Part shown: piece after piece, positions 1 to 50,584 of the stretch
Layout of the letters: the number at the start of each line of letters is the position of its first letter
How positions within the stretch are numbered: position 1 is the stretch's first letter
DNA from: an uncultured Clostridia bacterium
GTDB lineage: Bacteria; Bacillota; Clostridia; Christensenellales; UBA1242
DNA length: 51,314 nt
Direction: 5' to 3'
Assembly (NCBI GenBank): GCA_944383375.1
Contig: CALWPG010000003.1
Span: 64,339-115,652, forward strand
The notes under the pieces: model-generated
What the model was told of the DNA's origin: nothing
Databases searched by the model: none
The model's input: the letters and a program-made list of their open reading frames with translations, nothing else
Translations under genes and position numbers: made by a program

Positions 1-986
1 TCATTTGTCGAAAAGGTTAGTGTGTTACAGTGTATTTCCTCAACTACAATATCAATATTTTCAACATGCCCACTGCCATCAGTTGCAACTATTTGAAGAG
101 TTGTTTCTCCAATGCCCTTTGCCGTGATTTTGTCTTGTTCAAACGAAACAATGTTTTCATCTGCAACAATGACATCATACAAAGGTAAACAATGTTGACT
201 TATCGCGACTTTGAAATTGGTGGACATATATTTACCGTCTGAATTTGCCATGTCACTTTGATTACTGTCAAACAAAAATAAAGATAGCATGTTGTTTTGA
301 TAGGAATTTGAAAAAGATATTTCAAAATCCGAAATATACTCATAGCAATCAATGTCAAAGTGTTTGGAGTAATTACGATACTCAAATTCAAACCAGGTTT
401 CGTCATAACTTGCCACCGTGAAATTAAATTTCAAATTTTCACCTTCTACTTCGGTGAAACTCTCTATATTGTCACTTGTGTGTATTGTAAAATTGCCATG
501 AAGTGGAACATCGGTTGAAATACTGAGCGAGTAGCTTTCTCCGACAAAGACTTTATCTACCACTTCATCGCAAGACACCGTAAACGAAACCTCTTCAACT
601 GTTGGATACACGGTGACCAAAAATGTTTTAGATAAGCTTTTATCACTTGTGGCAACTTCTGCAAGCACATCAAAAGTACCACTTTTGATTGGATATACTT
701 TGTCATCAATTATTTTTATTGCACTTTTGTCATATTCATATGTGAGTGTATAATCTTTGTTGCACGTGACATTGACATTAAGTTTTGCATATTCGTCGTC
801 TACAAACATTGTCACATCACCACAAGTTAGATCTATTTTTGTCTCTTCTTCGTTCACACTGTCAGTGGTATCATTAGTTGGTTGTTGTGGAGAAGATGGA
901 ATTTTAACATTTGCAATTATTATGGCTGCTACGGCAACAACAATGATCGCAACAATCACAGAACAAATTTTCAGTTTATTTTTCAT
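1..986 (-). CDS. Secreted/membrane-anchored protein with Ig-like (Big2-type) domain, partial
   Basis: A continuous reading frame runs from the ATG at 986 off the left edge of the window (at least 328 residues, no stop reached). The N-terminus is a short lysine-rich stretch followed by a hydrophobic segment (about residues 8-27, rich in I/V/A), then a Ser/Pro/Gln/Thr/Asp/Glu linker, so the protein is probably anchored by its N-terminus or secreted; no lipobox is visible. The rest is beta-rich. Near the visible end the pattern VxxDENIVSFEQDKITAKG followed by GxTTLQIVATDGSG resembles a bacterial Ig-like group 2 domain. The role is unknown; a surface function is inferred. It is transcribed divergently from the gene at 1208. 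There is no Shine-Dalgarno: a TATAAT lies exactly 6 nt before the ATG, so the mRNA is probably leaderless. Confidence 0.75.
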   Translation of the reverse strand, partial: MKNKLKICSVIVAIIVVAVAAIIIANVKIPSSPQQPTNDTTDSVNEEETKIDLTCGDVTMFVDDEYAKLNVNVTCNKDYTLTYEYDKSAIKIIDDKVYPIKSGTFDVLAEVATSDKSLSKTFLVTVYPTVEEVSFTVSCDEVVDKVFVGESYSLSISTDVPLHGNFTIHTSDNIESFTEVEGENLKFNFTVASYDETWFEFEYRNYSKHFDIDCYEYISDFEISFSNSYQNNMLSLFLFDSNQSDMANSDGKYMSTNFKVAISQHCLPLYDVIVADENIVSFEQDKITAKGIGETTLQIVATDGSGHVENIDIVVEEIHCNTLTFSTN

Positions 987-992
987 GCAACA

Positions 993-1020
993 ATTATACT
1001 AAAAAATTGACAAAATACAA
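993..1020 (-). promoter_or_regulatory. Sigma-A-type promoter giving a leaderless mRNA
   Basis: On the minus strand TTGTAT (1015-1020), a 16-nt spacer and TATAAT (993-998) lie 6 nt before the ATG at 986. With the usual distance from -10 to the start of transcription, +1 falls on the A of the start codon. Confidence 0.55.
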
Positions 1021-1070
1021 AATATTTTGACAAATGTTGAATTGGATATTTCGACGCCGTCTCATTCATT

Positions 1071-1133
1071 GTCATTCCGAAGTGCGATAGCACTGAGGAA
1101 TCTTTGAGATCCCTCACTGCGTTCGGGATGACA
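1071..1133. repeat. Interspersed palindromic repeat, full-length copy
   Basis: An imperfect inverted repeat: the left arm starts GTCATTCCGAAGTGC and contains GAGGAATCT; the right arm AGATCCCTCACTGCG ends CGGGATGAC. The arms are complementary over about 26 nt. It lies between two divergent genes. Related partial copies occur elsewhere in the window. Confidence 0.8.
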
Positions 1134-1157
1134 AGTGGAGTAAGAAAAAATAAGGTA

Positions 1158-1186
1158 TTGACAAAAGTTAAGAGATGTGGTATACT
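1158..1186 (+). promoter_or_regulatory. Strong sigma-A promoter for the gene at 1208
   Basis: TTGACA (1158-1163), a 17-nt spacer and TATACT (1181-1186). A leader of about 15 nt follows, carrying the Shine-Dalgarno GAGGAG before the ATG at 1208. Confidence 0.8.
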
Positions 1187-1207
1187 CACAAACAAGAGGA
1201 GAGATAA

Positions 1208-2841: not shown

Positions 2842-2848
2842 AAATGTT

Positions 2849-2897
2849 AAAAAGGCATCTTGTTGATAGGATTATCGAATGTTGGATGCCTTTTTTG
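2849..2897 (+). terminator. Rho-independent terminator
   Basis: AAAAGGCATC (from 2850) pairs with GATGCCTTTTTT (ending 2896) across a long loop; the T-run completes an intrinsic terminator for the 1208-2841 operon. Confidence 0.8.
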
Positions 2898-2903
2898 TAT
2901 GCC

Positions 2904-11831: not shown

Positions 11832-14760
<2,929 letters not shown>

Positions 14761-14809
14761 AGATTTTGTTTGACAAAATCTATACAATTTGGTATATACA
14801 ATTAAGCTC

Positions 14810-14843
14810 AATATTTGAGTGATTATGCAGTTGTCAGGGTACT
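14810..14843 (+). other. 3' half of the 23S processing stem
   Basis: ATATTTGAGTGATTATGCAG and the following TTGTCAGGGTACT pair with the leader segment at 11688-11723. Just before it, AGATTTTGT/ACAAAATCT (14761-14781) forms a perfect 9-bp hairpin at the 23S 3' end. Confidence 0.8.
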
Positions 14844-14890
14844 GACTATATTAAATAGATATTTCGTGGCATAAGCCATTAAATATACCA

Positions 14891-15009
14891 TTTCTGGTGA
14901 CATTAGAGAGAAGGTTCACCTGTTCTCATCCCGAACACAGAAGTTAAGCTTCTCATCGCCGAAAATACTTGGCTGGAGACGGCCTGGAAAGATAGGACAT
15001 TGCCAGAAA
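14891..15009 (+). rRNA. 5S ribosomal RNA
   Basis: About 119 nt. The ends TTTCTGG and CCAGAAA pair. The conserved core CTCATCCCGAACACAGAAGT, the stem GTTAAGCTTCTCATCGCCGA and the loop-E region GGAAAGATAGGAC are recognisable. It lies about 130 nt after the 23S in the same unit. Confidence 0.95.
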
Positions 15010-16562: not shown

Positions 16563-16592
16563 TTAACATAATTTGTCTCAGTTGCATATAAC
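16563..16592 (+). promoter_or_regulatory. Promoter giving a leaderless mRNA with GTG start
   Basis: TTAACA (16563-16568), an 18-nt spacer and TATAAC (16587-16592), then exactly 6 nt to the GTG at 16599. Confidence 0.6.
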
Positions 16593-16598: not shown

Positions 16599-17048
16599 GT
16601 GAACAACTACTACATTTCTCTGTTAAAAAAGACATATTACGGCGAGGCTGGAGAAGTCTTTAATTCGTTGATGTTTTGCAGTTTTGCATGCACACTTTCA
16701 ACTTTCGAAAATCAATTTAGTCAAATTTTTTATGAGATCTTAAGCGATGAACAAAAACATCAAATACTACTGGGGGAATGCATTGCAAAACTTGGGGGCG
16801 ATTTGGATTATGAAAATTTTGATACTGTGTGTGGTAATTTGATTTTTACAAAAAATATACAAAAAATGCTGGAATATAGCATAAAAATTAAGGAAAAATC
16901 TATAATTAATTACAAAATTATTCTTGCAAAAATAATGGAAAAAAATGTAAAAAATACAGTAAAAAATATTTTAGCGGACGAACAAAGGCATTTATTGTTA
17001 TTAAAAAGCATGTTGGAAAATTATAATTTGGTGGAGGAAAATAAATAA
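16599..17048 (+). CDS. Ferritin-like / rubrerythrin-type protein
   Basis: 149 residues, all-helical. Two metal-ligand patterns of the ferritin-like fold are visible: GEAGEVFNSLMFCSFA with a following SDEQKHQILLGE (about 49-60), and ADEQRHLLLL near the C-terminus (about 127); glutamate plus ExxH-like pairs are the di-iron ligands in this family. It could be a small di-metal oxidase, peroxidase or iron-handling protein; there is no rubredoxin-like CxxC tail. The start is GTG: the overlapping ATG two bases earlier hits a stop at once, and the -10 element sits 6 nt before the GTG. It is likely expressed alone. Confidence 0.75.
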   Translation: MNNYYISLLKKTYYGEAGEVFNSLMFCSFACTLSTFENQFSQIFYEILSDEQKHQILLGECIAKLGGDLDYENFDTVCGNLIFTKNIQKMLEYSIKIKEKSIINYKIILAKIMEKNVKNTVKNILADEQRHLLLLKSMLENYNLVEENK

Positions 17049-17182
17049 AAAAAATTGCCTTGAAATGAAAATTTGATAAATTTTAGAGCAGGTATATTTC
17101 TATAATAAATATTTATGCTCAATTCGTTTGATAAAATTATAAAAAAAGTGTTAGAATAAATCGAAAAGTGTAGGAGATGTGT

Positions 17183-20100
17183 ATGAAAAAATTCACTCAT
17201 TACATATTGTCGATTTTTTGTATTCTAACAGCAGTAACATTTTTTGCGTGCAACGAACCAAAAAGTTTGAAATTTGAAAATAATTACATTGAAATGTCAA
17301 TCGGTGATGATTTTGACATTTCTTCTATTTTACAGGTGGAAAATATTGATAGGCAAGATGTGTCATACACAGTTTACGACAGTTCAATAATTTCTCTCGA
17401 GGGGACAACCATAACTGCACTTTCTGCGGGAAAAACTTTTGTCGAGGCAAGTTTTGAAAACAACGTTGCAAATCTTGAAGTAAATGTCATAGGCGAGAGC
17501 ATACAGGCGCCAACTGTAAATGGTCTTACTTACAACACTAATTCAAAGACAGTTGTTTGGGACAATGCACTTATCAAAACACAAAACTCCTTGCTTATAG
17601 CAAATTCATACACAGTAAAAATTGATGATGGAGAAAGCAGTGAAGAATTTGTCACATACACAAATTCATATGCCTTCAACACAAATGGTGAATATTCTAT
17701 TTCAGTGAAAGTCAATGATTTTATCTCAAATGGTCACATAGTCTACAAAGGTTCAGCATATTGCTCACCAATTGAGGTAGAGATTTTGCCAAGTCCAACT
17801 TCAGTTGTCTTTGATGATTTGACTTCAACACTATCGTGGTCATACGACAATACAGATGCTCAATTCAAGGTGATTGTCAACGGACTTGAAAGTGAGATAA
17901 TTTCTCAGACAAGTTACAAGCTCGACCTAACGGGACAAAACATAAATAGTCAAACAATCTATGATGTAAGTGTAGTAAGTACTAAACAAAATAGTGATGA
18001 TAAAATTTTAGTTGAAGGCTCAAGTGGAGTAAAAACTTATACAAGACTTTATGCGCCAACTCTTGAGATTCAAAACGGTATTGTGGTTTGGGATAATTCT
18101 CAAACTGGAAATTTCCATTACGAACTCACGTGGACTGACACCACTGGCAACAAAAATTCACAAACGGTTAGTGGTGGAAGTTTTGCACTTGATAACATTC
18201 CAGCGGGAGTATATTCCATTTCTATCAGCGCCATAAGTGACGATGAAGCTTTTCTTTCCAGCAAAAACACAAGTGAAATAACACAAGTTGAAAAACTTTC
18301 CATTCCAGTCATCAACTTTGATCCTGTAACTAGACAAATTTCAGTTGTTGATCACGAAGATAGAAATATAAAACTTGCCATTACTTTCGCAGGTCAAACT
18401 GAAAATGTCACACTTGTAGATGGGGTTTACACTTTTGACAAGACACAGGCTGGGCAATATCAAATTGTCGCATATCAAGAAGCTCGTGAAAATGAAAATA
18501 AATTGAACAGTGATGCTTCAACGCCTTTAAACATCATCCAACTTGCCGGTGTGGATTTAGCTAGTGTTATTCAAAAGGTTGAAAATGGAAAATATTATAT
18601 AGATTTTGACAGAGATGATGAAAATACTTATGCCTTGTCATACATTGATGGTGATCAAGAATTTGCCCTTAATCAATCACAGGATAAGTCCTATGCAGTT
18701 GTAGACGAAGTGTTTGATGAAGTCAAAGAGTATCCAATCGTCATCACCGAATCAAGAGATAACAGCACAGGAAATACTTACTATTTGCCTTCAAAGACCA
18801 CTGTGTATGTTGAACGTCAAGCAAATTTAACACTCAGTGGAAATCCACAGACCCAGCCTACAGTAATCAGCTGGCAAGTACTTGGGTATGCCAGCGAATA
18901 TGAGTATTACATCACAAAAAACGGCGAAAATTTTGCAAGTGGTACAACCAAACTTACAAATTTGGAACTTCCAACTTTGGAATATGGCAATTATATAGTA
19001 TACGTCAAAGCAAAAGGTGCAAATGTCGCTGGAAAATTGTATTTGGACAGCCTTTCATATGCGGAGCTAGCTTTTGATGTTGTTATGACACTGGATGCAC
19101 CTGTTGTAGAATTTGACAGAGAAACACATATCGTAACAATTCACAAAGTTGCAAATGCTACAAGTTATTATATTTCATTAAACGAAACACAAAAACAAGC
19201 ACAGGACAATGGCGAAACACTCACATTAAACTTGACAAATGAATTGTCTAATGCCGGATCGTATATCTTGAAAGTTTTGGCACAAAATGAAAATGCCTTA
19301 ATTTTAGACAGCAGTGAAAGTACTTTAAACATTGTAAAACTTCAAGCGCCTCAAACATATACAATTTCACCTAACGGGACGATAAGTGTGGAGATTAATG
19401 GAAATGAACAATACTTATCTCCATCAAGATATGAGATTTGGGTTGGTGAACAAATGACAAATCTCATAGGCCAAGAAAATGAATATGTTGTGAAAGGTAA
19501 ATTCGTATCCACCGATCAACAAGTTGAAAATACATATTATCTTGACAGTGATTTTACTGAGTTCACTGTAAAGAGATTGTCATCACCTTCAAACCTCGTG
19601 CTTAAAAACGTAAATCTCTCTTGGGATACTTGTGATAATGAGAATTTTGAATATTTGATTACCTTTACACAAGATGAACTTACGCAACTGTACACCACCA
19701 GTAGCAGCGACGTCAATGTGATGCAAGCGCTTATCGGTTCACATATAAATACTCACGAAGATTTTTATGCAAATGTCACATATTCTTTCAAAGGTCAAAG
19801 TTTTGATGTCGAAGAGAATTTAGTTGTCGATTACACCAGTCAGCCAAGTGAAGATGTATTAATTCATAGACTTTCTTCAGACATAAATGTATCTGTAACA
19901 GAAGATCAGGGACAGGTTACCATGAGTTGGGATCAAAGCGAAATAGATGGAACAATCTACGAAATAATGTTTGATTCCGACACCATTTCAAGACAAACTC
20001 AAAACTCTATAGACATCACACAATATGTTTCCACTCCGGGAGTACATAGTTTTATATTGCAAGCCTCATGTGACGGTTATGTGACTTCGGATTATATTAC

Positions 20101-23100
20101 AGTCCAAGTTGAAAGGCTTGAAAATGTTAGCCAAATCACCATTGATGAACAAGAAAACATATTGATAAACACAGATTATCAAGTGGGAACTGAGATTGAA
20201 AGTGTTCAAATTCAAGTTGATGGACAAGATGTCACAAATGTCAAGGGGCACGATGGCGAATTTACCGTTTACACAAAACTTATCGCTAACAAAAACACGC
20301 AAGATAATTATTTTTATTTAGATAGTGCCGTAAATTCATATATGTTTGAACGAGTACGTCCTCTTGCTGCTCCACTATTTAGCCAAGATGGCTTAATGTA
20401 CTGGGACAACATAAGCGGAATAAACACGTACATTTTAAAAATTTCAGCCGATACGGAACAGACATTGCAGTTACAACAATCCAGCATAGACATCAACGAC
20501 ACCACAATAAAAGACATTGTCAGCATTCTTGGTGGTTATGAATTTAATGTAAGCGTTATGGCATATGTAGGGCAGTTTAACATCTCAAATGGTGAAAAAC
20601 ACCTACTGTCATCTTCTTACAGTCAAAATTCGAAATTTTTCAAATTACAAGCACCAAATAGTGTCACAGTTTCACCTTATGATGAAGACTTTAGACAGCA
20701 AGTCATAAAGGCATCGTGGTCATATAATTCAACTGGTGTGAATTTAGGTGGTTTTGAAGTTGTAGTTCACTTGGAAGGTGTTCTTACTCCAAATACATTG
20801 ACAGTTGCAGCCGATTCAACCTCTGCTCAGATAAACTTTGCTCAAGGTTCTGGAAAATATACACTTTACGTCACAGCAAAAGGTACATCCAATTATATGG
20901 ATAGCGATGCGTCTGATGCAGTTTCTTTTACAAGATTGGATGCTCCAACCAACAAGAGCATTGATCAAAATGCAGTACTAAATTTCACCGGCACAAATTT
21001 GGCAGAGGGTTATGTTATTACATACACAAACAATGGTGCCGTTTCAGGAAGAGTTGATAGCGACAACACCACAGTTGACTTAAAAAGCTATCTATACAGC
21101 AGTGCATTTTCTGGTGAAATTTACATAAATGTTTATGCCACCGGAAATGGGGCAACCACATTTACCAGCGCTTTTGAGGAAACACTCATTGCCACCAAGG
21201 CGCCAGCAGGTGAAATACAATTGTTTGTGGACAAACTTGTTGCTGGTGGAAGCATACAAGATGCGCACTCATATGAATACAACATAACCATCACTCAAAA
21301 CAATAGAGTTGTAAAACAACTTGAATTAAATTATGCCGATGAATATGTGTTTGAAGATTTTGTTTACCAAGATAATGGACAAAGTGTTGACACAACGAAG
21401 GATACAGATTATGTCATCACGATCACAAGGTCTTTAAACGGAAATAACTATATTACTTCAGACCAAGTGACATACAATTTCACAAAACTAGCAAGTGTGC
21501 AAAATCTTGGTTTTGTCAGAGAAAACGAAAGTTTTGACTCCATAATCTCTTTCAGGGCAGATGCAGTTTCAAACGCATCTGGTTATGTTTTGGCAATTGC
21601 AGACCATGTCATAACAGACTTTATTTATGATAATGGATACATAAAAGTTGATCTAGACAATCAAGTATATCCATACATAGATTCAAACTTTACATTCCAG
21701 ATCTATGCTCAGGGCATTATAGACAAAACCGGCAGTGGAACAAATTACATCAACAGTTCAACCACACAAATAAGTGGTACAAAACTTTCTCCAGTTACCA
21801 ATTTCAAAACGGTAAATGGTGTACTTACTTGGGACAAAGTTGACCTCGCCTATGATTATGCCATAAAGGATGACACGTATCTTTATACAGGTTATGTCAC
21901 AAATGGGGTTCACACAACGCAAGAAAGTTTGACAGGAAGAAGTGGTGCACTTAGTTTAAATATCAAGGCAGTCGGAAATGTTGGCACAACACTTTTGACT
22001 TCAAATATCGTATTGGATTCAACATATATTTTGGATGAATACAATAATTTACTCAATTACGAATGCACGAAATTGGAAAAGGTCTCTTCACTTGCAGCGA
22101 CAAGTGGCTATATATCTTTCGCCAAACTTGCGGATGAAAATGTAATTTACCAAGCTGTGACAAACAGTGGTGGACCGTTTGAACTAAGTGAAGAAGTTAT
22201 TGATGACACACTTCAAGACATTTCAACATTCTATAGTGATGAAATGTATAACTCACTTGCGACAGACACAATATACACACTGAGAATTGTTGCCACTTCA
22301 AACCAAGAAGATATCATCTACAGTGATCCAAGTGATGCAATTGAAATACGCATACTAAACAGCAATATTTCCAACCTTAGAGTTGAACTAAAACAACTCA
22401 GGACAGACCCAGATGGAACAATAGTGTATGACTACACCCAAAGCAGTTTGAAATGGGATAATCCAAATAGTGGAAACTACAGTTATGCCATCGACATCAA
22501 CGGAAATGCAATAATAGAAACGAATACTGAATTTTTGCTTACAAACAATGAAAAATATCAGTTTGGAGTAGGATCGTATGTTGTGCGTGTGGCTGTGATA
22601 GGCATTTCTGATGATCAAAGCAATGTGTATTCTCTCATTTCAAAATTCTCTCCATCAATTATCTTCACAAAACTTGCCTCTCCAACACCATCAATCAGTG
22701 AGGGACTGTTGGCCTGGACAAGTGTGGCTGGTGCAGGAGGATATATAATTCGCTTGTATCAAAATGGAGATATTCAATTCCAAAGTGATGTGATAAATTC
22801 AGCAAGTTATTTCCTAGATATGAGTGGCTCAAGCAATATCACTTATGACAGATATGATGTGATTGCAGTTCCGTATGCAAACACAAACTTTATTGCAAGT
22901 GATGCTGCCACGTATGTTGATGATGAAGCAAACGCAAAGCCTGTTGTAAAACTCAGCCCAACTGACATGCTCACGGTCCAAAATGGTGCACTAACTTGGA
23001 ATGTTGATTGGGGATGGGAGGACATAGGCATATACCTTGACTTACTTGCAGAAGAAGATGTCGAAGAGCCATTTACACTAAGCATGGCTAGTTTACAAAA

Positions 23101-26100
23101 CCTTAGTGACAGAATTACACTTAGGTTTGAAGGAGTAGGCGGGAGCTATACATTCGTCGACACAGCAGCAGCATATTGCCTGCTTTCTGATGACATGAAA
23201 AATCTGGTTGGATCGGTGGCCCCTGGTTTAGAACCACTTTTAACTAGCCTTGAATTTTATGGCTGGCCATCGCTCAATAACAATTCTACAGACTTTGGTT
23301 CAGCAATGAATGCCGGATACTATAGCCTATATGTAAATCAGGTAGGTGACAGCAATAAATACCTTACATCAAATTACGGATCTGGGATGCAAGTTTACAT
23401 TCCATACGCACCAGTTGTCAAACTGGTATACACTAACAGCAGTTATGAACTTCAATGGGATAGAATAACCATTCCAAGTCAGTATTATGATCAAGCTGTC
23501 AGATACATCGTCTATGGCCTACAACAAGTAACTAACGAAGATGGCGAAACTATTACAAAAAGAGTTATGCTTACAAGCGAAGACGGAATAACAGACACAT
23601 ATTTCAATTTGTCAAATCTTATTGAAAATGATACATTAGATAGCAGTTTCACCGGTTTTGCCGTCTATGTAAGGGGAGATAACTCTGTTGTTTTAAACGG
23701 AAAGGTCTCAAACATAATCAATGTTGAAATCTTAGATGACACCAAGGCATACGTAAGAAATGGTGAACTGTATTGGAATTCTCAACAAAGTGCGACATCT
23801 TATATTGTATATTACACCGAAAGCACAAATCCAGATAATCCACCAAAATCCGTTGTACTAACACAAGCACATTGGGATGCGCAAGAACTAGATAGCAATA
23901 TTCCATATTACAATATTTCCATCCAAGCGATAGGAGATGGTGCATCTTCAACAATAGCAGTGCTCACCGGCAAAAATACCCCTGTTGGAAAACTATCCAA
24001 ACTTCCATCTCCAAATCCTGAGGTGACAAATGGCGTGTTTAGATGGCAGCAGGTGGACAACAGCACTTCCTATAATGTCAACGTGACTGGTGAGATCAAT
24101 GAAGTAGTGGCTATTGCAAATTCAACTGATAGCGAAAATTATATCTACTATCAAAGCAACTTCCCACAACAAAATCTTGGCTATGGAATGGTTGCAGTAG
24201 GTGACTTAAACGTTGACCTAAGCATTGACGGCGACATAGCATATGTCAATTCAGCTCCAAGTCAAACCATATATGCAACGCTTATTCCAACAGTTCAAAA
24301 TGTAAGCGCGATAAATGGACAGCTTAGTTGGGATAAGGTTATAAACAGTAATGTGGTTGTGTCAAATTACAAATTGACATTGCAAAAAGTAAATGATGAG
24401 GGTACACCACTTGATAGTGAAATCATAGTAGAGAGCAACTATTCGGGACCAAACAACACTGGAGTGTTCGATTGTGCGATACTTGAAGCGGGCAGGTATA
24501 CTGTTGTGGTTCAAGGCTATTTCGAAACTACTTCAAGTGCCGGTGATGATTCTGGAAGATATATCTACAATGGACAAACTGCATACTATTTAATGGGACT
24601 TATGAGTCAACAATATACCTTTGAAAAATTTGATACCGTGATAGGCTATGACGAAACAGGCCTTGTTGATAACATAGTCATCCATGATGGGGTGCTATCA
24701 TGGCAGTACGCAGGAGATAACGACGAGAGCATCTATGAATATGAATTGAGGTTTACAACTCCAAATGAGACATTTAGTGTAAGAATTGAAGATGAAAGTT
24801 ACTCTGGACACATTGTTGACCAGCTCATCGTTCCTGGCTCAATTGAGTTAGAGATCAGAGTGGTTGCAAAACAAGGCGTAGCTGGTCAAGGCTATGTCAA
24901 CTCTGACTACAAAAAGTTCATTAATATCCATCACGATAGTTCTCCATATATCTATCAATTGGACGGACTTTCAGAACATGACATCATTCTTGGCAGAGTT
25001 GGAGATAGTGAGGACTTGCACATTTTGTGGCAAGACTACATTCCATCTGTAAATGGGCTTGCGGCAGACATAAATGTCCAATATTTGGTAACCTATTACA
25101 CAAGTTTGGATCCAACAGAGCATTCAATAGTTGTGGATACACAGTACATAAGCACAGCAGAGTTTAATTTCTCAATAGGTGATGAATATACATTATATTA
25201 CTACATTACTGTGCTTCCAATTGGCAACCAAAGTTATGTTGCTTCCTATCCATCCGAGGTAAGAGCAATTCAAAAACCTGAGTCGGTCAGTGAGGTCACA
25301 TACAACTCCACAGAAAAATACTTTACATGGGCTACCGATGGCACATCACAAGACCATGTATTCAAAATCAAGGACGAAGTACTTGCTGTCAATGAAAACG
25401 GCGAGATAATATATGAAAACGGGCAACCTGTTGTGGTTAGAACATACATCTTCACAACCGATAGTAACACCACAAACATATACTATCCTGTTGAAATGGG
25501 TGCACACAAGGTATCTGTGGCCGTGGTGGTAAGAAACAGTGGCATGGATGGCAGTTTGACCTCAGACTACACCTATTATTACGATAGGATAAATGAGCCT
25601 GAAAACCAAAATGTGGGTACAATTGTACTTGTGGATTTGTTCAAAGTGACTTCAGTGTCACAAGATGTTTATGGTGGCATGGGCACTTCGGAAAATCCAT
25701 ACTTAATTGAAACCACTCAACATTTTGCAAATATTTCCTACAGACTAAGCAAACCTGATTATCAAAATAGTTATACTCTTACCATAGGGGATGTGGATAC
25801 CGCGGTTACACTAAGCGGAGAAGATTTGTATTTACACTTTAAACAAGTGGCAGATCTAAACGATGTGGCTCCTCTTGGAAATGGAGTGGTCACAGAATTT
25901 TCTGGCATATATGATGGTGATATGCATTCCATCTCGTGGAATTTTGACCTTGGAAACATCTCAACTGCACAAAATACAAGGCAATACGTTGCATTGTTCG
26001 GAAGAGTTGGTGAAAACGCAGCCATAAGCAATTTAAGGGTCTATGTGACATTGCAAGGGCAGACGATAACAGGATCCACAGTTTCACTTCTTTGTTATGA

Positions 26101-27095: not shown

Positions 27096-27101
27096 TAAAA
27101 T
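27096..27101 (+). promoter_or_regulatory. -10 element, near-leaderless
   Basis: TAAAAT 5 nt before the ATG at 27107, with no Shine-Dalgarno. A weak TTATAT lies 17 nt further upstream. Confidence 0.4.
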
Positions 27102-27106: not shown

Positions 27107-27808
27107 ATGAAATTTATAACAATAAAAAAACGAACTATTTGTATTGTTTTGGCATGTATTGTTTTGATTTGCTCTCTTGTTGGCATATTTTATGCTGTAA
27201 GTACAGCATCTTCACCACAACCTTATTACACCGTAGTTATTGATGCTGGGCACGGTGGTATTGACAATGGTTCAATAGGTTATAGCGGAACGCTAGAAAG
27301 CGAGATTAATCTTTGGTATGCAAAAACCCTTAATGAATATTTTTCGCAATTTGGGTTTAAGGTTATAATGACCAGGGAGAATGAAAATGGACTATATGGA
27401 CCATTTGCCTCAAACAAGAAAAAAGATGACATGAAAGTCCGTCAAAGCATAATTGAAAACGCAAAACCTGACATGGTCATAAGCATTCATATGAATAGCT
27501 TTAAGGAAACATCTTCTCGCGGTGCACAAGTTTTCTATGCTAAAGACAGCACGACAGGTCATCTTTTGGCGCAAAATATACAAAACCAGTTTAAAAAGCT
27601 TTTGATAAAACCAAGAAACGAGTGCCAAGTCGGCGATTATTTCATCGTCAATTGCACAAAGTATCCAAGTGTTATTGTGGAATGTGGATTTATTTCAAAT
27701 CCCGAAGAGGAACAATTGCTTTTAACCGAAGATTACAAAAACCAAGTGTGCTATGCCGTAGTGTGTGGAACACTATCATATCTTATGTCTAATGATGCAC
27801 TATCATAA
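27107..27808 (+). CDS. cwlD: N-acetylmuramoyl-L-alanine amidase, CwlD-like
   Basis: 233 residues. An N-terminal membrane segment or signal (about 10-32) is followed by an Amidase_3 domain. The zinc ligands are visible: DAGHGGIDNG (His), ESEINL (Glu) and ISIHMNSF (His); the catalytic Glu is in VIVECGFISNPEE. Size and single-domain layout match CwlD, which with PdaA makes muramic delta-lactam in the spore cortex; a general cell-wall amidase is the alternative, since nothing else of sporulation is nearby. The length of the loop before MKVRQSIIENAKPDMVI also fits CwlD. Start without Shine-Dalgarno (see the -10 element). Confidence 0.82.
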   Translation: MKFITIKKRTICIVLACIVLICSLVGIFYAVSTASSPQPYYTVVIDAGHGGIDNGSIGYSGTLESEINLWYAKTLNEYFSQFGFKVIMTRENENGLYGPFASNKKKDDMKVRQSIIENAKPDMVISIHMNSFKETSSRGAQVFYAKDSTTGHLLAQNIQNQFKKLLIKPRNECQVGDYFIVNCTKYPSVIVECGFISNPEEEQLLLTEDYKNQVCYAVVCGTLSYLMSNDALS

Positions 27809-27825: not shown

Positions 27826-27854
27826 TTACCATTATTTTTTGTTTGTGATATAAT
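27826..27854 (+). promoter_or_regulatory. Promoter giving a leaderless mRNA
   Basis: TTACCA (27826-27831), a 17-nt spacer and an extended -10 TGATATAAT whose hexamer (27849-27854) ends 6 nt before the ATG at 27861. Confidence 0.65.
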
Positions 27855-27860
27855 ACACAC

Positions 27861-28796
27861 ATGACGACACTTGAAATTGTATTTTTATCTGTCTTTTTGA
27901 TTGTGGCTGTGACAGGCATATATCTTATTTTATCCAGCGAAATCAAGTATCTGTTGACTATTAAACGTAATTGTGTATTTGCAAAATTTATTTCGCGCTA
28001 CACAGTGCAAAACACAAAAAAATATAAGATAGATATGTCATGGTGGGAAAAAGTTAAAATTGAGGATATAAATATATCATCCAATGATGGCTTAAAACTC
28101 TGTGGATATTTCTTACACAAAAATGACAAAAAAATTGCACTTGTGATTCATGGTTATGGAGCCAGCGCCAAGGAGATGCAACAGTATGCAAAAATGTTCT
28201 ATGATATGGACTATTCAGTCCTTTTGGTGGACAACAGAGGTCATGGACAAAGCCAAGGTAAGTGCATAACAATGGGGTATTACGACCACATGGATGTTTC
28301 GCTTTGGGTAGAATATGTTGTAAAACTTTACCCAGATTGTCAAATGGTGGTGTTTGGGCTGAGCATGGGAGCCGCCACAGCGTGTCTATATAGTGGTGAC
28401 AAAAAGCCAAAAAATGTCAAAGCCATCATAAGCGACTGTGCATATTCAAGCGCATATAATGTGGTTCAAAATCTTTGTGAACAAAGCATAATTCTCAACT
28501 TTTTTCCATCGTTATTTGTGTACAATTTGTATTTAAAGTACAGAGCAAAATTCAAGCTTTCAGATATTGATGTCAAAGGTGCAGTGAGTAAATGTGATAT
28601 TCCCATACTTTTTATCCATGGTAGCAGGGATAAATTTGTACCTTTTTACATGCAAGAGATTTTATATAAAAATGCACCACAAAATTTAAGACAAAAATAT
28701 GTCGCTGAAGGTGCAAGTCATGCCGAAAGTTTACCACTAAAAGGCGAGGAGTATATTAACCAAGTTCGCCAATTTTTGACAAAATATATTAAATAA
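27861..28796 (+). CDS. Alpha/beta hydrolase, membrane-anchored
   Basis: 311 residues. One N-terminal transmembrane segment (about 4-27) precedes an alpha/beta-hydrolase domain. Visible are the oxyanion region VIHGYGASAKEM (about 95), DNRGHGQSQGK, the nucleophile elbow FGLSMGAAT (Ser about 171), the acid in IHGSRDKFVPFY (about 254) and the base in EGASHAES (about 288). This layout is common in Firmicutes (YqkD/BAAT-like hydrolases annotated as peptidases or lysophospholipases); the substrate is unknown. The next small gene follows after 24 nt but seems to have its own -10 element. Confidence 0.85.
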   Translation: MTTLEIVFLSVFLIVAVTGIYLILSSEIKYLLTIKRNCVFAKFISRYTVQNTKKYKIDMSWWEKVKIEDINISSNDGLKLCGYFLHKNDKKIALVIHGYGASAKEMQQYAKMFYDMDYSVLLVDNRGHGQSQGKCITMGYYDHMDVSLWVEYVVKLYPDCQMVVFGLSMGAATACLYSGDKKPKNVKAIISDCAYSSAYNVVQNLCEQSIILNFFPSLFVYNLYLKYRAKFKLSDIDVKGAVSKCDIPILFIHGSRDKFVPFYMQEILYKNAPQNLRQKYVAEGASHAESLPLKGEEYINQVRQFLTKYIK

Positions 28797-28808: not shown

Positions 28809-28814
28809 CATAAC
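28809..28814 (+). promoter_or_regulatory. Candidate -10 element at leaderless spacing
   Basis: CATAAC exactly 6 nt before the ATG at 28821. It is a weaker hexamer than the others and no convincing -35 is present; read-through from the hydrolase gene is possible. Confidence 0.35.
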
Positions 28815-28820
28815 AACTGC

Positions 28821-29018
28821 ATGGGATATTATAATTATCATGCCATGATCAAACAAAAGATAAAACAAGGCGAACTTGAAAGATTTGAGTTTGTGGATAG
28901 TTACAAAAAATATAGTCCTTGCCTTCTTCTTTATTTCAAGGACGGAAAAGTTTTTCCTATCAAAGAGCATAGGTTTGATGAATATATAAAGATATTAAAT
29001 TCACAAAATAACGCATAA
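28821..29018 (+). CDS. Small conserved-type protein of unknown function
   Basis: 65 residues, soluble, with alternating helix and strand character: YYNYHAMIKQKIKQGEL, a strand pair around KYSPCLLLYFKDGKVFPIKE, then HRFDEYIKIL. From memory the YNYHA...LLLYF....PI..HR..EY layout occurs in small uncharacterised proteins of Clostridia, but I cannot confirm the family. No Shine-Dalgarno is present. It sits between the hydrolase gene and typA, and typA has its own promoter. Confidence 0.6.
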   Translation: MGYYNYHAMIKQKIKQGELERFEFVDSYKKYSPCLLLYFKDGKVFPIKEHRFDEYIKILNSQNNA

Positions 29019-29101: not shown

Positions 29102-30937
29102 ATGACAAATGAAAATATAAGAAATGTAGCAATCATTGCACACGTTGACCATGGCAAAACATCACTAGTAAATGAAATGTTAAAACAAGGCAATGTGTTT
29201 AGAGATAATCAAGTAGTTGTGGACAGGGTGATGGACTCCAATGCACTTGAAAGAGAAAGAGGAATTACCATACTTTCAAAAAACTGCAGTTGTGAATACA
29301 AAGGTGTCAAAATCAACATTGTTGACACTCCTGGACATGCAGACTTCGGTGGCGAAGTTGAAAGAGTTTTAAAGATGGTGGATGGAGTGCTTTTGGTTGT
29401 TGACGCCTTTGAAGGGCCGATGCCACAAACAAGGTTCGTCTTGGAACATGCACTCAAACTTAACTTGAAGGTCGTTGTCGTTGTAAACAAAATAGACAGA
29501 CAGGATGCGAGAATAAATGAAGTTGTTGATGAGGTCTTGGAACTTTTTATGGATCTAAATGCCAACGACGAACAACTTGATTCTCCTTTTGTTTATGCTT
29601 CGGCAAGAACTGGCAAAGCTAGTCTTGATCCAAATGAGGAAGGCGAAAATTTTGTTCCACTTTTTGAAACCATATTGAAACATATTTCAGCACCTCAAGG
29701 AGACGCAGATGCTCCAATGAGGATGTTGGTTTCATCCTGTGAACACAATGATTATGTTGGTAAACTTGCCATTGGAAAGATGGAAAGAGGAGAACTTAAA
29801 GTAGGAGACAGCATCGTTTTGTGTAACTATCACGACAGCGCGAAAAATGCGAAAGGCAAGATAGTACAGCTCTTTACCTACAAAGGTCTAAAACGTGAAC
29901 AAACCGGCACTGCTTCTATGGGGGATATAGTCTGCATAGCAGGACTTGAGGATGTACAAATTGGTGACACAGTATGTTCTCCACAAGACGTAACGCCACT
30001 TGAGTTTGTTCAAATAGCTGAGCCAAGCGTGGAAATGACTTTTTTAGTAAACAACAGCCCATTTGCTGGCAAAGAAGGTAAATTTGTAACAAGTAGGCAC
30101 CTAAGAGACAGACTTTACAAAGAAGCAATTAAAGATCTGTCACTCAAGGTAAGTGACACCTCAAGTTCTGAGGCATTTACTGTATGTGGAAGAGGTGAGA
30201 TGCATCTAAGCATTTTAATTGAGAACATGCGCCGTGACGGCTATGAATTTCAAGTCAGTATGCCAAGGGTAAGGTACAAGGAAATTGATGGAAAAAAATG
30301 TGAGCCTGTCGACATAGTGACACTAGATGTTCCACAGGAAAATGTAGGCACCGTAATGAACAAGATGGCAGTCAGAAAAGGGGAACTTATCAAAATGACT
30401 CCAAAGGGGTCAAGAATGAAGTTGGAATTCTATATTCCAGAGAGGGGACTTTTTGGTTTTAGAAGTGAACTTTTAACTGACACCAAAGGCGAAGGAATCA
30501 TGACTTCAATATTTGATAGTTATCAACCTTTCAAGGGGGAAATTGATAGAAGAGTGTATGGTTCACTCATTGCATACGAAACAGGCGAGGCAATAGTTTA
30601 TGGCCTATACAACGCACAAGAACGTGGCGAATTATTCATCACTCCTGGCACAAAGGTCTATGGTGGAATGGTTGTTGGAAGAAATCCAAAAGGTGACGAT
30701 ATAGTTGTCAATGTCTGCAAGCGCAAGCACTTATCCAACTGTAGAGCAAGTGGTTCTGATGATGCGCTGAGACTTGAGACTCCAATTACTATGAGTCTTG
30801 AAGACTGTTTGGAATTTTTGGCAGATGATGAATATTTGGAGATTACACCAAAAAGTGTTAGAATAAGAAAGATAATATTAGATCACAATATGCGTCTTCG
30901 TGAAAGAGGTAAGATGCTAAGAGGTGAAAATGAGTAA
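29102..30937 (+). CDS. typA: Translational GTPase TypA/BipA
   Basis: 611 residues, the normal length. GTPase motifs: AHVDHGKTSLV (G1, residue ~14), RGIT (G2), DTPGHADFGGEVER (G3), NKIDR (G4) and SARTGKA (G5 region). EF-G-like domains II, III and V follow, then the TypA-specific C-terminal domain (GLYNAQERGELFITPG, KRKHLSNCRASGSDDALRL). TypA binds the ribosome and supports assembly and stress growth. Start by ATG with GAGGT upstream. It heads an operon with a small membrane protein, dnaB and a VTT-domain protein; the next gene overlaps by 8 nt (ATGAGTAA). Confidence 0.96.
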   Translation: MTNENIRNVAIIAHVDHGKTSLVNEMLKQGNVFRDNQVVVDRVMDSNALERERGITILSKNCSCEYKGVKINIVDTPGHADFGGEVERVLKMVDGVLLVVDAFEGPMPQTRFVLEHALKLNLKVVVVVNKIDRQDARINEVVDEVLELFMDLNANDEQLDSPFVYASARTGKASLDPNEEGENFVPLFETILKHISAPQGDADAPMRMLVSSCEHNDYVGKLAIGKMERGELKVGDSIVLCNYHDSAKNAKGKIVQLFTYKGLKREQTGTASMGDIVCIAGLEDVQIGDTVCSPQDVTPLEFVQIAEPSVEMTFLVNNSPFAGKEGKFVTSRHLRDRLYKEAIKDLSLKVSDTSSSEAFTVCGRGEMHLSILIENMRRDGYEFQVSMPRVRYKEIDGKKCEPVDIVTLDVPQENVGTVMNKMAVRKGELIKMTPKGSRMKLEFYIPERGLFGFRSELLTDTKGEGIMTSIFDSYQPFKGEIDRRVYGSLIAYETGEAIVYGLYNAQERGELFITPGTKVYGGMVVGRNPKGDDIVVNVCKRKHLSNCRASGSDDALRLETPITMSLEDCLEFLADDEYLEITPKSVRIRKIILDHNMRLRERGKMLRGENE

Positions 30938-34644: not shown

Positions 34645-34673
34645 TTGACAACATTTTTATGTAATTTTATAAT
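34645..34673 (+). promoter_or_regulatory. Consensus promoter giving a leaderless tlyA mRNA
   Basis: TTGACA (34645-34650), a 17-nt spacer and TATAAT (34668-34673), a perfect sigma-A match, then exactly 6 nt to the ATG at 34680. No Shine-Dalgarno can exist downstream of +1. Confidence 0.85.
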
Positions 34674-34679
34674 CTTTGC

Positions 34680-35405
34680 ATGAGATTAGACATTTTTCTA
34701 CAAACAAAAGGTTATGTAAATTCGCGAAGTAAAGCACGTGAACTCATAAAAAATGGCAAGGTGTTGGTGAATGACTCCGTGGCAATCAAATGTGGGCTTG
34801 ATGTCAATGATGGTGACAAAATTGAACTTTTGGATGTCATAACCTACGTTTCGCGCGCAGGGCACAAGATAGAGGGCGCTTATGAGGAATTTAACCTTTC
34901 CTTTAAAAATCTAGTAATTTTGGACATTGGCGCTTCAACAGGAGGCTTTTGTGATTTTTGTTTAAAGCATGGCGCGAAAAAAGTTTATGCCTTGGATGTT
35001 GGAACAAACCAATTAGACCGAACACTAAAACAGGACAAAAGAGTTGTGGACATGCAAAATACCGACATAAGGAATTTAGACCTTGGGCTTGTGAGTGACA
35101 TGGATGTGTTTGTGTGTGATGTATCCTTCATATCATTGACCAAAATTTCAAATATTCTTTCAAAACTTTTGGACATTGCAAAATATGGTGTCGTACTCAT
35201 AAAGCCACAGTTTGAGTGTGGAAAGGAGATAGCAAAGAAGTCTAAAGGAATCATAAAAGATGAAAAAGTACACAAACTAGTTATAGATAGTGTTAAAAAA
35301 GACTTTTTGTCACAAGCAATAAAAATTGAAAAATTAACCACATCGAAAATACTTGGTGGTGATGGAAATGTTGAATATTTGGCACTTGTTAAAAAGTTGA
35401 CATGA
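34680..35405 (+). CDS. tlyA: TlyA-family rRNA 2'-O-methyltransferase / hemolysin A
   Basis: 241 residues. N-terminal S4 domain (RLDIFLQTKGYVNSRSKARE, KNGKVLVNDS), then an FtsJ/RrmJ-like SAM methyltransferase: VILDIGASTGGFCDFCLKHG (SAM loop, about 80), ALDVGTNQLD, VCDVSFISLTKI and a C-terminal VLIKPQFECGKE. In Mycobacterium TlyA 2'-O-methylates 16S and 23S rRNA; in Firmicutes it is the YqxC protein, with the same likely role. In many Clostridia it lies with xseA/ispA/dxs or recN; none are here. No ribosome site: leaderless from a perfect promoter. The promoter of the next gene begins in its stop region. Confidence 0.9.
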   Translation: MRLDIFLQTKGYVNSRSKARELIKNGKVLVNDSVAIKCGLDVNDGDKIELLDVITYVSRAGHKIEGAYEEFNLSFKNLVILDIGASTGGFCDFCLKHGAKKVYALDVGTNQLDRTLKQDKRVVDMQNTDIRNLDLGLVSDMDVFVCDVSFISLTKISNILSKLLDIAKYGVVLIKPQFECGKEIAKKSKGIIKDEKVHKLVIDSVKKDFLSQAIKIEKLTTSKILGGDGNVEYLALVKKLT

Positions 35406-43628: not shown

Positions 43629-43657
43629 TTTCCAAAATATAACTTTTATGTTATACT
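43629..43657 (+). promoter_or_regulatory. Promoter giving a leaderless cca-uvrC operon mRNA
   Basis: TTTCCA (43629-43634, weak), a 17-nt spacer and TATACT (43652-43657), then exactly 6 nt to the ATG at 43664. No Shine-Dalgarno. Confidence 0.6.
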
Positions 43658-43663
43658 TGGGCT

Positions 43664-44926
43664 ATGAAAAAATTTAAAGAAATAATTGTGTCAGAAAATC
43701 TTGATAAATTGGCACAAAAACTAAAGAAAAAAGCAGAACTTTTCATTGTAGGTGGCTATGTTCGAAACAGTTTACTCGGAATCGGTAGCACCGATATCGA
43801 CCTTGCAAGTAAATTGACCACAACTGAGCTAACTGAACTTTTAAAAGACACACCATACGTGGTCAAAGAAAAAAACAAAAGACTGGGCACGGCGACAATC
43901 AAAATTGGTGAAGAGTTTTATGAGCACACCACATTCAGGACAGAAGTGTATGACGGCACGGGCAAGCACACTCCTGACATTGTCACATTTGTGGATGATA
44001 TTCGCCAGGACGCAAAGCGAAGAGACTTCACTGTGAATTGCATTTATTACAGTATAACGAGAAAAAAGATAATCGACATATACTCAGGCCTATACGACCT
44101 TGAAAAAAAGAGAATAAGGACAATTGAAACACCTGAATTTGTGTTTTCTTGTGACGGGCTTAGGATTTTAAGGATGATTAGAATAGCCTGCGAACTCGGT
44201 TTTTCCATTGAAAAAAATACCTACAAAGTGGCACAAAAAATGGCATACAGAGTAAAAGATATCTCGGGCACAAGAAAGCAACAGGAATTAAATAACATAC
44301 TTTGGTGCGACAAAAAATATCCAATATCCAAAAAGAAATCTCATCTTAGGGCACTTTGTATGCTCAATGTCTTCAATCTTTTTTCTGCACTTTATTGCAC
44401 GGTGTCGAAGATAAAGTTAAGGCTTGTCAAAAAAGTTCAAGACCTTAGGCTAGAAGCGCTTTTGGTGGATATGATTGATGCAATAAATCCCGATTGTGTG
44501 GAATATTATCTTGACTTTATGTTGTCAAGCAAAGGATTCAATTTTCCAGCAAAGGCAAAGGAATATCTAATAAATGTCGTCTGTGGGTATTTTGATGCGA
44601 CAAACAAACTTTCAAACAGGGATTATTTTATAAAATATTATGAAAATTTTTCCAGCATCTCTCGGTTACTTGCAAAAGACCACGTGTTTTTATTCAACAG
44701 ATACAACTTTTTCTATAGATACCTTACAAATTATCATATTCCAATCAGGATTAAAGACTTGCAAGTAAATGGCAATGACATAAAAAAATATAGACCTAAA
44801 CTCGATGCGAAATACTATAATGAGATCTTGCAAAACTTGCTTATCAAAGTCTTTGATGGAGAAGTGGAAAACGATAGAGATAAACTTATAACGGAGATTA
44901 AAAATTATGACATTGCAAATAATTAG
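43664..44926 (+). CDS. cca: CCA-adding tRNA nucleotidyltransferase
   Basis: 420 residues, class II nucleotidyltransferase. Head domain: ELFIVGGYVRNSLLG then STDIDLASKL (catalytic DxD, residues ~45-48), RRDFTVNCIYYSI and DPD-free neck GLRILRMIRIACELGFSIE. The C-terminal half is helical and less conserved; no HD domain is seen. The enzyme adds or repairs the 3' CCA of tRNA; the one tRNA in this window already encodes CCA, so repair is a likely role. A poly(A) polymerase activity cannot be excluded. It heads a tightly packed operon: rmuC starts 20 nt before its stop. Confidence 0.88.
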   Translation: MKKFKEIIVSENLDKLAQKLKKKAELFIVGGYVRNSLLGIGSTDIDLASKLTTTELTELLKDTPYVVKEKNKRLGTATIKIGEEFYEHTTFRTEVYDGTGKHTPDIVTFVDDIRQDAKRRDFTVNCIYYSITRKKIIDIYSGLYDLEKKRIRTIETPEFVFSCDGLRILRMIRIACELGFSIEKNTYKVAQKMAYRVKDISGTRKQQELNNILWCDKKYPISKKKSHLRALCMLNVFNLFSALYCTVSKIKLRLVKKVQDLRLEALLVDMIDAINPDCVEYYLDFMLSSKGFNFPAKAKEYLINVVCGYFDATNKLSNRDYFIKYYENFSSISRLLAKDHVFLFNRYNFFYRYLTNYHIPIRIKDLQVNGNDIKKYRPKLDAKYYNEILQNLLIKVFDGEVENDRDKLITEIKNYDIANN

Positions 44927-49576: not shown

Positions 49577-49606
49577 AAATCGTAAATAACAACCAAATAT
49601 TTGTGT

Positions 49607-49612
49607 TATACT
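49607..49612 (+). promoter_or_regulatory. -10 element at leaderless spacing
   Basis: TATACT exactly 6 nt before the ATG at 49619. The longest reading frame would start upstream at a TTG inside this promoter, which argues for the ATG. No clear -35 is seen. Confidence 0.5.
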
Positions 49613-49618
49613 AAAATC

Positions 49619-50584
49619 ATGGAAATAGCAATCGCTGTAGTTTTGCTGGTGGTGGCATTATTTTTGGTGGTCAAAGGTGGAGACGTCTTTGTCTCTTCTT
49701 CTGCCGTTCTTGCCAAAAAAGCCCACATACCTCAAATAATCTTTGGTGCAACTTTTATGAGTCTTGCCACCACTTTTTCTGAGCTTTTGATTGGCATAAT
49801 CTCCAGCATCGACGGTACAACTGACCTTGCAGTCGGCAACGCAGTGGGTTCAGCCCTTTGCAATGTTGGACTTGTTATGGCAATTGGTATGTGTTTCATG
49901 CCTTCAAAAATTGGTGGAGGCGGGATGCTCAAATACTATCTTTTGATAGTCGCCATTGTTTTTGTCACAGTGATAGGCTTTTTTGATGAAGTCGCAATCT
50001 GGCAAGCTTTTGTGATGATTGCAATTACTTTGACATTTTTTGTTTTCAATTACATTGATGCAAAAAACATGGAAACCAAAAACAAAGGCGACGAAGAGGA
50101 AATTCAAAAACCACTTTGGCTTGCCATAATACTATTTTTGTTAGGTGCGGCAGCTATAGGTGGTGGTGCATATTTGCTTGTTGACAAGGTGGAATACCTA
50201 AGTGGAGTTATTGGCATAAGCGAACAGTTTGTGGGACTCACCGTTGTAGCAATTGGTACAAGTTTGCCCGAACTTGTGACGGTCATAACCTCACTTAAAA
50301 AGAAGACACCTTATCTTGCAATGGGAAACATAGTTGGCTCCAACATTTTAAATCTCACACTCATCTTAGGGGTGTCGCGTCTTGTCGCGTGGAATGATGG
50401 CATGCCAATAACAAAGGAAACGGCATACATTTCTCTTCCACTGGTACTGCTGTTTACACTAATTTTGTTACTTCCAATTCTCATAAAGAAAAAGACATAT
50501 CGCTGGCAAGGTATTGTACTTTTGGTGCTTTATGTATTGTACATCGTATTCTTAGTTTTAAATGCAGTGTTTGGATGGATTTAG
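49619..50584 (+). CDS. Sodium/calcium exchanger (CaCA family)
   Basis: 321 residues from the ATG at 49619; an in-frame TTG at 49601 would place the promoter inside the gene. Ten hydrophobic helices in two inverted halves. Alpha repeats: GATFMSLATTFSELLIGI with GNAVGSALCNVGL (first), and GLTVVAIGTSLPELVTVI with GNIVGSNILNLTLIL (second); the Glu ion ligands are kept, while the first repeat has a Ser in place of the usual Pro. A charged loop separates the halves (NKGDEEEIQKP). It probably exports Ca2+ in exchange for Na+ or H+. The NUDIX gene follows after 23 nt. Confidence 0.9.
   Translation: MEIAIAVVLLVVALFLVVKGGDVFVSSSAVLAKKAHIPQIIFGATFMSLATTFSELLIGIISSIDGTTDLAVGNAVGSALCNVGLVMAIGMCFMPSKIGGGGMLKYYLLIVAIVFVTVIGFFDEVAIWQAFVMIAITLTFFVFNYIDAKNMETKNKGDEEEIQKPLWLAIILFLLGAAAIGGGAYLLVDKVEYLSGVIGISEQFVGLTVVAIGTSLPELVTVITSLKKKTPYLAMGNIVGSNILNLTLILGVSRLVAWNDGMPITKETAYISLPLVLLFTLILLLPILIKKKTYRWQGIVLLVLYVLYIVFLVLNAVFGWI

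What the first reader, a model, noticed from the sequence alone, without database searches (positions are those of the whole stretch)
986..49621. A class of leaderless genes: -10 hexamer exactly 6 nt before the start codon
At seven genes the promoter -10 element ends exactly 6 nt before the start codon: 986(-) TATAAT, 16599 TATAAC (GTG start), 27861 TATAAT, 28821 CATAAC, 34680 TATAAT, 43664 TATACT, 49619 TATACT; an eighth (27107, TAAAAT) is at 5 nt. Since +1 lies about 7 nt after the hexamer, transcription would begin on the start codon, leaving no leader and no Shine-Dalgarno. Other genes in the same window (1208, 9474, 29102, 39964) have normal leaders with GGAG-type sites, so the organism appears to use two initiation modes. 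Leaderless mRNAs are well known in Actinobacteria, Deinococcus and archaea; such a constant, frequent class would be unusual for a Clostridia-like bacterium.
Basis: partly seen in the sequence, partly recalled or inferred. Interest (0 to 1): 0.78.

Follow-up and report, generated by a model that had tools for sequence, protein, structure and literature searches.

The report
Leaderless genes in genome-reduced gut Clostridia
In a family of tiny-genome gut bacteria related to Clostridia, a small but sharply defined set of genes has its promoter placed so that the messenger RNA should begin exactly at the start codon, a second way of starting protein synthesis that is rare in this branch of bacteria.

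Summary
All seven sites exist as stated, and the pattern is real beyond the window. With a promoter model trained on other genomes, 13 of 350 genes sampled from this genome have a promoter exactly 6 nt before the start codon. No other spacing from -3 to 60 exceeds 4, and none scores at 8-14; outside the window it is 9 of 318. Two relatives reach 8-11% of sampled genes, three 5-6%, the sister species 1 of 60. These sites carry a TGn extended -10, often a -35, and a pyrimidine at -1 in 82 of 84, against 56% in other genes; ATG starts 82 of 84 model-positive genes. 25 of 38 positives have a positive ortholog, against 29 of 820 negatives. 44% of other genes have Shine-Dalgarno sites. The stringent motif runs at 9.4 per Mb in the family, 1.8 in the rest of the class, about 0.5 reversed. 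Best reading: transcription starts on the A of AUG and makes a leaderless mRNA. In the window, 27861, 43664, 49619 and 34680 are strong, 986(-) moderate, 16599, 28821 and 27107 weak. The kind is known; the lineage is new for it. No RNA data were available.

The parts
27849..27863 (+). -10 TATAAT (27849-27854) with TGn extension, 6-nt spacer, ATG of an alpha/beta hydrolase gene (27861-28796); -35-like TTACCA at 27826-27831
   Evidence: Model score 15.9, trained without this genome; homologs in L095, L096, L099 and L098 keep TGATATAAT at 6 nt while the flanks differ; Hydrolase_4
43652..43666 (+). -10 TATACT (43652-43657) with TGn, 6-nt spacer, ATG of a CCA tRNA nucleotidyltransferase-like gene (43664-44926)
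   Evidence: Score 10.9; PolyA_pol domain; CCA tRNA nucleotidyltransferase models, below their curated cut-offs
49607..49621 (+). -10 TATACT (49607-49612) with TGn, 6-nt spacer, ATG of a calcium/sodium antiporter gene (49619-50584); -35 poor (3 of 6)
   Evidence: Score 9.6; -35 match; TIGR00367 above cut-off
34645..34682 (+). Consensus -35 TTGACA (34645-34650), 17-bp spacer, -10 TATAAT (34668-34673), 6-nt spacer, ATG of a TlyA-type methyltransferase gene (34680-35405)
   Evidence: Score 9.1; TIGR00478 above cut-off. The four other homologs whose upstreams were displayed show no such hexamer at 6 nt (by eye)
984..998 (-). -10 TATAAT (993-998), 6-nt spacer, ATG at 986 of a 509-aa ORF that begins with a hydrophobic stretch and runs off the window
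   Evidence: Score 6.1; reading frame completed in L255
16587..16601 (+). Weak candidate: TATAAC (16587-16592), 6-nt spacer, GTG of a rubrerythrin-like gene (16599-17048)
   Evidence: Score -0.7; Rubrerythrin
28809..28823 (+). Weak candidate: CATAAC (28809-28814), 6-nt spacer, ATG of a 65-aa ORF (28821-29018)
   Evidence: Score -5.8; L095 and L098 carry CATAAT at the same spacing before a start that reads the same first codons
27096..27109 (+). Weak candidate at 5 nt: TAAAAT (27096-27101) before ATG of an N-acetylmuramoyl-L-alanine amidase gene (27107-27808)
   Evidence: Score 2.1 at d=5, -16.6 at d=6; Amidase_3
29102..30937 (+). Leadered comparison gene, TypA/BipA, with a Shine-Dalgarno-like site
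   Evidence: TIGR01394 above cut-off

Best explanation
A minority of genes is transcribed from vegetative-sigma-type promoters (TGn-TATAAT, often with a TTGACA-like -35) placed so that the likely start base, 7 nt after the -10 hexamer, is the A of the AUG. The mRNA then has no 5' leader and no Shine-Dalgarno site, and must be initiated as a leaderless message, presumably by direct binding of the 5'-terminal AUG to 70S ribosomes with initiator tRNA. A strict pyrimidine at -1 fits selection that fixes the start base and prevents a stray 5' nucleotide. The arrangement is inherited between orthologs, is also gained or lost, and is enriched in a family of genome-reduced gut Clostridia, probably GTDB family UBA1242. 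Shown by sequence: spacing, promoter anatomy, -1 and start-codon bias, conservation, distribution. Inferred: the actual transcript ends, the selection argument and the translation step.
For: Spacing peak at exactly 6 nt in this genome with an out-of-genome model (13 of 350; maximum elsewhere 4), and in G011, G004, G028, G034, G039 and the pooled TypA loci. Pooled hexamer set (84 of 1,602 called genes): -35 of at least 4/6 in 69%, against 20% at d 1-5 and 7-12 and 39% at d 15-30; T and G of TGn at 80% and 71%. Pyrimidine at -1 in 82 of 84, p about 2e-18, 13 of 13 in this genome. ATG in 82 of 84 model-positive genes against 72% of 1,515 others; in the hexamer set 80 of 84. First-in-operon: upstream gap under 20 nt in 3% of 69 against 32% of 1,450. 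Local purine peak 7 nt after the hexamer in 206 leadered promoters. Orthologs at 40-95% identity: 25 of 38 positives have a positive ortholog, against 29 of 820 negatives; AddB-like genes 6 of 6 at 47-69% identity (one member tested). Family 9.36 per Mb, class 1.81, reversed about 0.5.
Against: No RNA data; another promoter further upstream is not excluded. Absence of Shine-Dalgarno is partly forced, because the -10 occupies its place (it is also 0 at d 7-9). The purine peak at +7 in leadered promoters is local only: positions +10 to +14 are as purine-rich (66-71%). Raw d6/d8 counts show no excess in the own genus. The sister species sample G019 gave 1 of 60 genes at score 6 and 0 at score 8. 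Of 64 ortholog pairs at 40-95% identity with the arrangement on at least one side, 36 have it on one side only; at 20-40% identity none of 21 keeps it (two LepA genes left out). The four displayed TlyA homologs lack it. Gene starts were called by a home-made coding-score caller.
Confidence: 0.88

Rival explanations
1. AT-rich, weakly structured sequence before start codons produces TATAAT-like strings by chance or by selection for open mRNA; no promoter is involved.
For: The genomes are AT-rich, and raw genome-wide counts in this genus show no d6 excess over d8.
Against: A one-nucleotide peak with near-empty neighbours, -35 and TGn at the right distances, pyrimidine at -1, and conservation between orthologs.
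Confidence: 0.03
2. The start codons are miscalled: the promoter is real but translation begins at a downstream codon behind a normal leader with a Shine-Dalgarno site.
For: Start calls are computational, and 44% of other genes have a Shine-Dalgarno site.
Against: Only 1 of 84 model-positive genes has a downstream in-frame start with a Shine-Dalgarno site within 30 codons, against 134 of 1,515 others. N-termini of orthologs are alike from the first residues, such as MTTLEIVFLS / MTVLEIVFLS. Pyrimidine at -1 and 98% ATG would have no reason.
Confidence: 0.04
3. Start-codon-proximal promoters exist, but a second, upstream, leadered promoter drives translation of the same genes, as described for Clostridium phytofermentans.
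For: In C. [quoted passage not shown] Upstream promoters of these genes were not scanned here.
Against: These genes have no Shine-Dalgarno site that a longer leader could use: 0 of 84 in the hexamer set, 1 of 84 model-positive genes by another definition.
Confidence: 0.05

Closest known systems
Leaderless genes of Actinobacteria (M. tuberculosis)
   Same: -10 element next to the start codon; start base within 5 bp of the start codon; -1 most commonly C and purine start base preferred over all TSSs (PMC3898074, passages)
   Different: There 22% of expressed genes, TANNNT, TGN before only 7% of these motifs and no -35 motif; here TGn and -35 are common and the class is about 4-11% of sampled genes
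-10-motif leaderless genes of Deinococcus-Thermus
   Same: -10 element next to the ORF with specific spacing requirements, leaderless mRNA tested by experiment (PMC12340547, abstract and passages)
   Different: About 30% of ORFs there; an added -35 enhances but is not needed; phylum unrelated
TA-led (leaderless) genes predicted in Firmicutes: Lactobacillales and Mycoplasma
   Same: Same computational signature; [quoted passage not shown]
   Different: That survey names these two Firmicutes clades; 'clostridi' does not occur in its main text
Rare leaderless TSSs in Clostridium phytofermentans and C. difficile
   Same: Clostridia in the broad sense
   Different: Few and called rare; in C. phytofermentans the genes generally keep an RBS

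Membership tests
Bacterial leaderless gene (TA-led) | -10-like TANNNT element about 10-12 nt upstream of the start codon, at a fixed distance | tested here: met
   Peak at d=6 in this genome and its relatives
Bacterial leaderless gene (TA-led) | No Shine-Dalgarno sequence | tested here: met
   0 of 84 at 4 nt or more; partly forced by the position of the -10
Bacterial leaderless gene (TA-led) | Transcription start base is the first base of the start codon | tested here: inconclusive
   Indirect: local purine peak at hexamer +7 in leadered promoters, pyrimidine at -1 in 82 of 84; no RNA mapping
Bacterial leaderless gene (TA-led) | 5'-terminal AUG is translated without a leader (70S route) | not testable with these tools
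   Needs translation experiments; AUG use of 82 of 84 fits
Vegetative sigma factor (SigA) promoter | TTGACA-like -35 16-18 bp upstream of TATAAT, optional TGn extension | tested here: met
   69% with at least 4/6; T 80% and G 71%; spacing 17 the commonest
GTDB family UBA1242 (Christensenellales) | Genome-based placement | tested here: inconclusive
   G000 and 58 relatives are 0.6-1.4 Mb; TypA 83% identical to 'Christensenella sp. UBA1242'; UBA1242 described as genome-reduced (PMC12306168, passages). No placement was run

The most novel reading that the evidence does not exclude
Leaderless initiation is a standing, selected second initiation mode in a whole family of genome-reduced gut Clostridia: promoters tuned to one nucleotide with a strict -1 pyrimidine and AUG, inherited gene by gene, expanded several-fold over the rest of the class and leaning to DNA-repair and RNA-modification genes.
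Probability: 0.6. Interest if true: 0.62.

Novelty: new member of a known kind. Interest (0 to 1): 0.52.

Why it matters
Leaderless initiation is treated as typical of Actinobacteria, Deinococcus and archaea. The Clostridia studied experimentally in the passages read show very little of it. A family where it ranges from 0 of 60 to about a tenth of sampled genes, and where orthologs with and without it can be compared, gives a natural series for asking how a gene switches initiation mode and what the ribosome needs for it. It also matters for annotation: gene finders that expect a Shine-Dalgarno site may misplace these starts in abundant uncultured gut bacteria.

Tried and rejected
Raw whole-genome counts of TATAATN6ATG against TATAATN8ATG were uninformative in the own genus and noisy elsewhere. 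Apparent d6 excesses in G402, G293 and G409 were not reproduced in the small gene-anchored samples available (0 at d6, one mismatch allowed, for 63, 18 and 6 genes); these are too small to settle it.

Link with ribosomal protein S1: I judged a multi-domain S1-like protein present in 23 of 59 family genomes from the capped listing (none over the family cut-off; one of the 23, G056, partial at a contig end); motif density does not differ (mean 10.2 against 9.2 per Mb, p = 0.43).

Codon 2-5 A content and folding of the first 40 nt did not differ clearly (p = 0.14 and 0.08). TlyA as a conservation test failed: my motif showed 5 of 9 loci, and the four others lack the arrangement by eye. An apparent switch of TypA between leadered and leaderless in G011 and G034 was an error of the reciprocal-best grouping: those two proteins are LepA (988 and 967 bits, cut-off 534), and the ortholog counts were redone without them. 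Functional enrichment was read off the annotated list, not tested. The 16S anti-Shine-Dalgarno was not examined: no 16S in the window or in four further loci.

Full report
What was checked. The seven sites and the eighth at 5 nt are in the sequence as described. The window lies in contig C3 of a 994,686-base, 18-contig, 99% complete genome. The best-matching records to its TypA protein are uncultured Clostridia MAGs (up to 91% identity), with 'Christensenella sp. UBA1242' at 83% and Candidatus Caccopulliclostridium gallistercoris at 79%. The 59 genomes of its family searched are 0.6 to 1.4 Mb. This fits GTDB family UBA1242, described as genome-reduced and uncultured (PMC12306168, passages), but I ran no formal placement.

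Spacing. Genes were called in 451 kb of this genome (window plus 20 stretches, about 45%) by coding score, without using promoters. TATAAT with at most one mismatch (A2 and T6 kept) ends exactly 6 nt before the start in 13 of 352 genes, against a mean of 4.5 at the neighbouring spacings; in G011 it is 16 of 159 against 2.2, in G004 13 of 158 against 1.6, in G028 5 of 82 against 0.8, in G034 4 of 76 against 0.4, in G039 3 of 51 against 0.2, in the sister species G019 1 of 60 against 0.9. A model of -35, extended -10 and spacer trained on the other genomes and applied to this one gives 13 of 350 genes at d=6 (score 8 or more); no other spacing from -3 to 60 exceeds 4, d=8-14 have none, and a broad second group starts at d=15. 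Outside the window it is 9 of 318. So there are two separate groups: promoters that start on the codon, and promoters that leave room for a leader. The model was trained on d=6 sites, so it undercounts leadered promoters.

Anatomy. Pooled over 1,602 called genes (this genome, five relatives, 80 TypA loci), 84 have the hexamer at d=6. Of these 69% have at least 4 of 6 matches to TTGACA 16-18 bp upstream, against 20% for hexamers at d 1-5 and 7-12 and 39% at d 15-30; T and G of the TGn extension are at 80% and 71%. None has a Shine-Dalgarno match of 4 nt, but hexamers at d 7-9 have none either, so that part is largely forced. The base before the start codon is a pyrimidine in 82 of 84 (13 of 13 in this genome), against 56% in other genes, p about 2e-18; this base was not used to pick the set. 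In 206 leadered promoters of the same genomes there is a local purine peak 7 nt after the hexamer (72%, against 52% at +6 and 50% at +8), although +10 to +14 are as purine-rich (66-71%); the base before that peak is only 48% pyrimidine. So +7 is the likely start base, and the strict -1 pyrimidine is peculiar to the d=6 class. I read it as selection to pin the start base to the A of AUG; this is inference.

Start codons and position. In 84 model-positive genes (score 6 or more, model trained without the genome in question) ATG is used in 82, against 72% in 1,515 others (p about 2e-9); a downstream in-frame start with a Shine-Dalgarno site occurs in 1 of 84 against 134 of 1,515. In the hexamer set ATG is 80 of 84, GTG 2, TTG 2. 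Hexamer-positive genes tend to be first in their operons: an upstream gap under 20 nt in 3% of 69 against 32% of 1,450, same-strand upstream neighbour in 57% against 77%.

Conservation. Here the best of all candidate starts within 60 nt was used, and 105 of 1,663 genes are positive. Of 8,336 reciprocal-best pairs, 29 have the arrangement in both and 219 in one. Many of the latter came from two LepA genes (G011, G034) paired with TypA paralogs; without those two there are 8,173 pairs, 28 both, 57 one, 0.39 both expected if independent. At 40-95% identity 28 are both and 36 one; at 20-40% none of 21 is both. The two LepA genes, 68% identical to each other, are both positive. Of the 105 positives, 38 have an ortholog at 40-95% identity in the sample and 25 of these have a positive ortholog; for 820 negatives it is 29. 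An AddB-like nuclease gene keeps it in 6 of 6 genomes at 47-69% identity. The hydrolase gene at 27861 keeps it in L095, L096 and L099 and, once its miscalled start is corrected, in L098 too.

Which genes. The 18 candidates with score 4 or more in this genome include PcrA, PriA, a DNA polymerase III delta'-like protein and MnmE, an RNase R-type RNB protein and an HhH-GPD DNA-repair protein, TlyA and a CCA-adding-type enzyme; others are a glycosyltransferase, a lytic transglycosylase, a zinc peptidase, the antiporter and unknowns. PriA, MnmE, TlyA and the antiporter pass a curated NCBIfam cut-off; PcrA, the delta' and the CCA-adding models do not. The lean towards DNA repair and RNA modification resembles what Zheng et al. 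report for information-processing categories (PMC3160421, passages), but I did not test enrichment.

Distribution. The stringent motif TGNTATAATN5YATG occurs 573 times in 61.2 Mb of 59 family genomes (9.36 per Mb; reversed control 0.52) and 673 times in 371.5 Mb of 152 other genomes of the class (1.81 per Mb; control 0.46). 46 of 59 family genomes exceed the class's 95th percentile. In the phylum sample 195 of 249 genomes have at least one match and, read off the table, none has more than 10. Gene-anchored samples: 2 of 172 genes in G372 of the same order, 0 of 154 in G419 of the same class, and 0 of 54, 56, 47 and 63 in G330, G302, G080 and G402. The own genus is at the low end: 6, 4 and 4 stringent matches, and G019 has 0 of 60 at score 8.

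Literature. In passages read, Firmicutes leaderless genes are placed in Lactobacillales and Mycoplasma (PMC3160421); C. difficile has 15 potentially leaderless genes (PMC7438776); in C. [quoted passage not shown] Searches for leaderless with Christensenell (two papers, listing only) and for leaderless with metagenome-assembled, translation initiation and Shine-Dalgarno (none) gave no sign of a report of this class in this lineage; PMC12306168 on UBA1242 does not use the word leaderless in its main text. Papers outside the held open-licence library and preprints were not searchable, and the domain-wide motif scan in PMC12340547 (Fig. S7) could include related genomes; its text has no occurrence of Firmicutes or Bacillota.

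Verdict. It is a new, well-marked occurrence of a known mechanism, not a new mechanism. The open steps are transcript ends and translation.

Noticed in passing
L032:18514-19105 (-) (G000 contig C1): OLE RNA (RF01071, 404.5 bits, full model length) in this small gut genome.
   Followed up: no
window 11833-15008: 23S and 5S rRNA genes are together, but no 16S reaches the Rfam threshold in the window; the 16S gene seems unlinked.
   Followed up: no
window 17177-26935; L036:6746-19999: Giant ORFs of 3,252 aa and of at least 4,418 aa (still open at the end of the stretch) in a 1-Mb genome.
   Followed up: no
59 genomes of the family: A multi-domain S1-like ribosomal protein gene is patchy: judged present in 23 of 59 genomes; for the others the capped listing shows mostly short S1-domain matches inside ORFs of about 700 aa.
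   Followed up: partly
window 986 to below 1 (-), completed in L255: 509-aa predicted protein with an N-terminal hydrophobic stretch, possibly exported or membrane-anchored.
   Followed up: no
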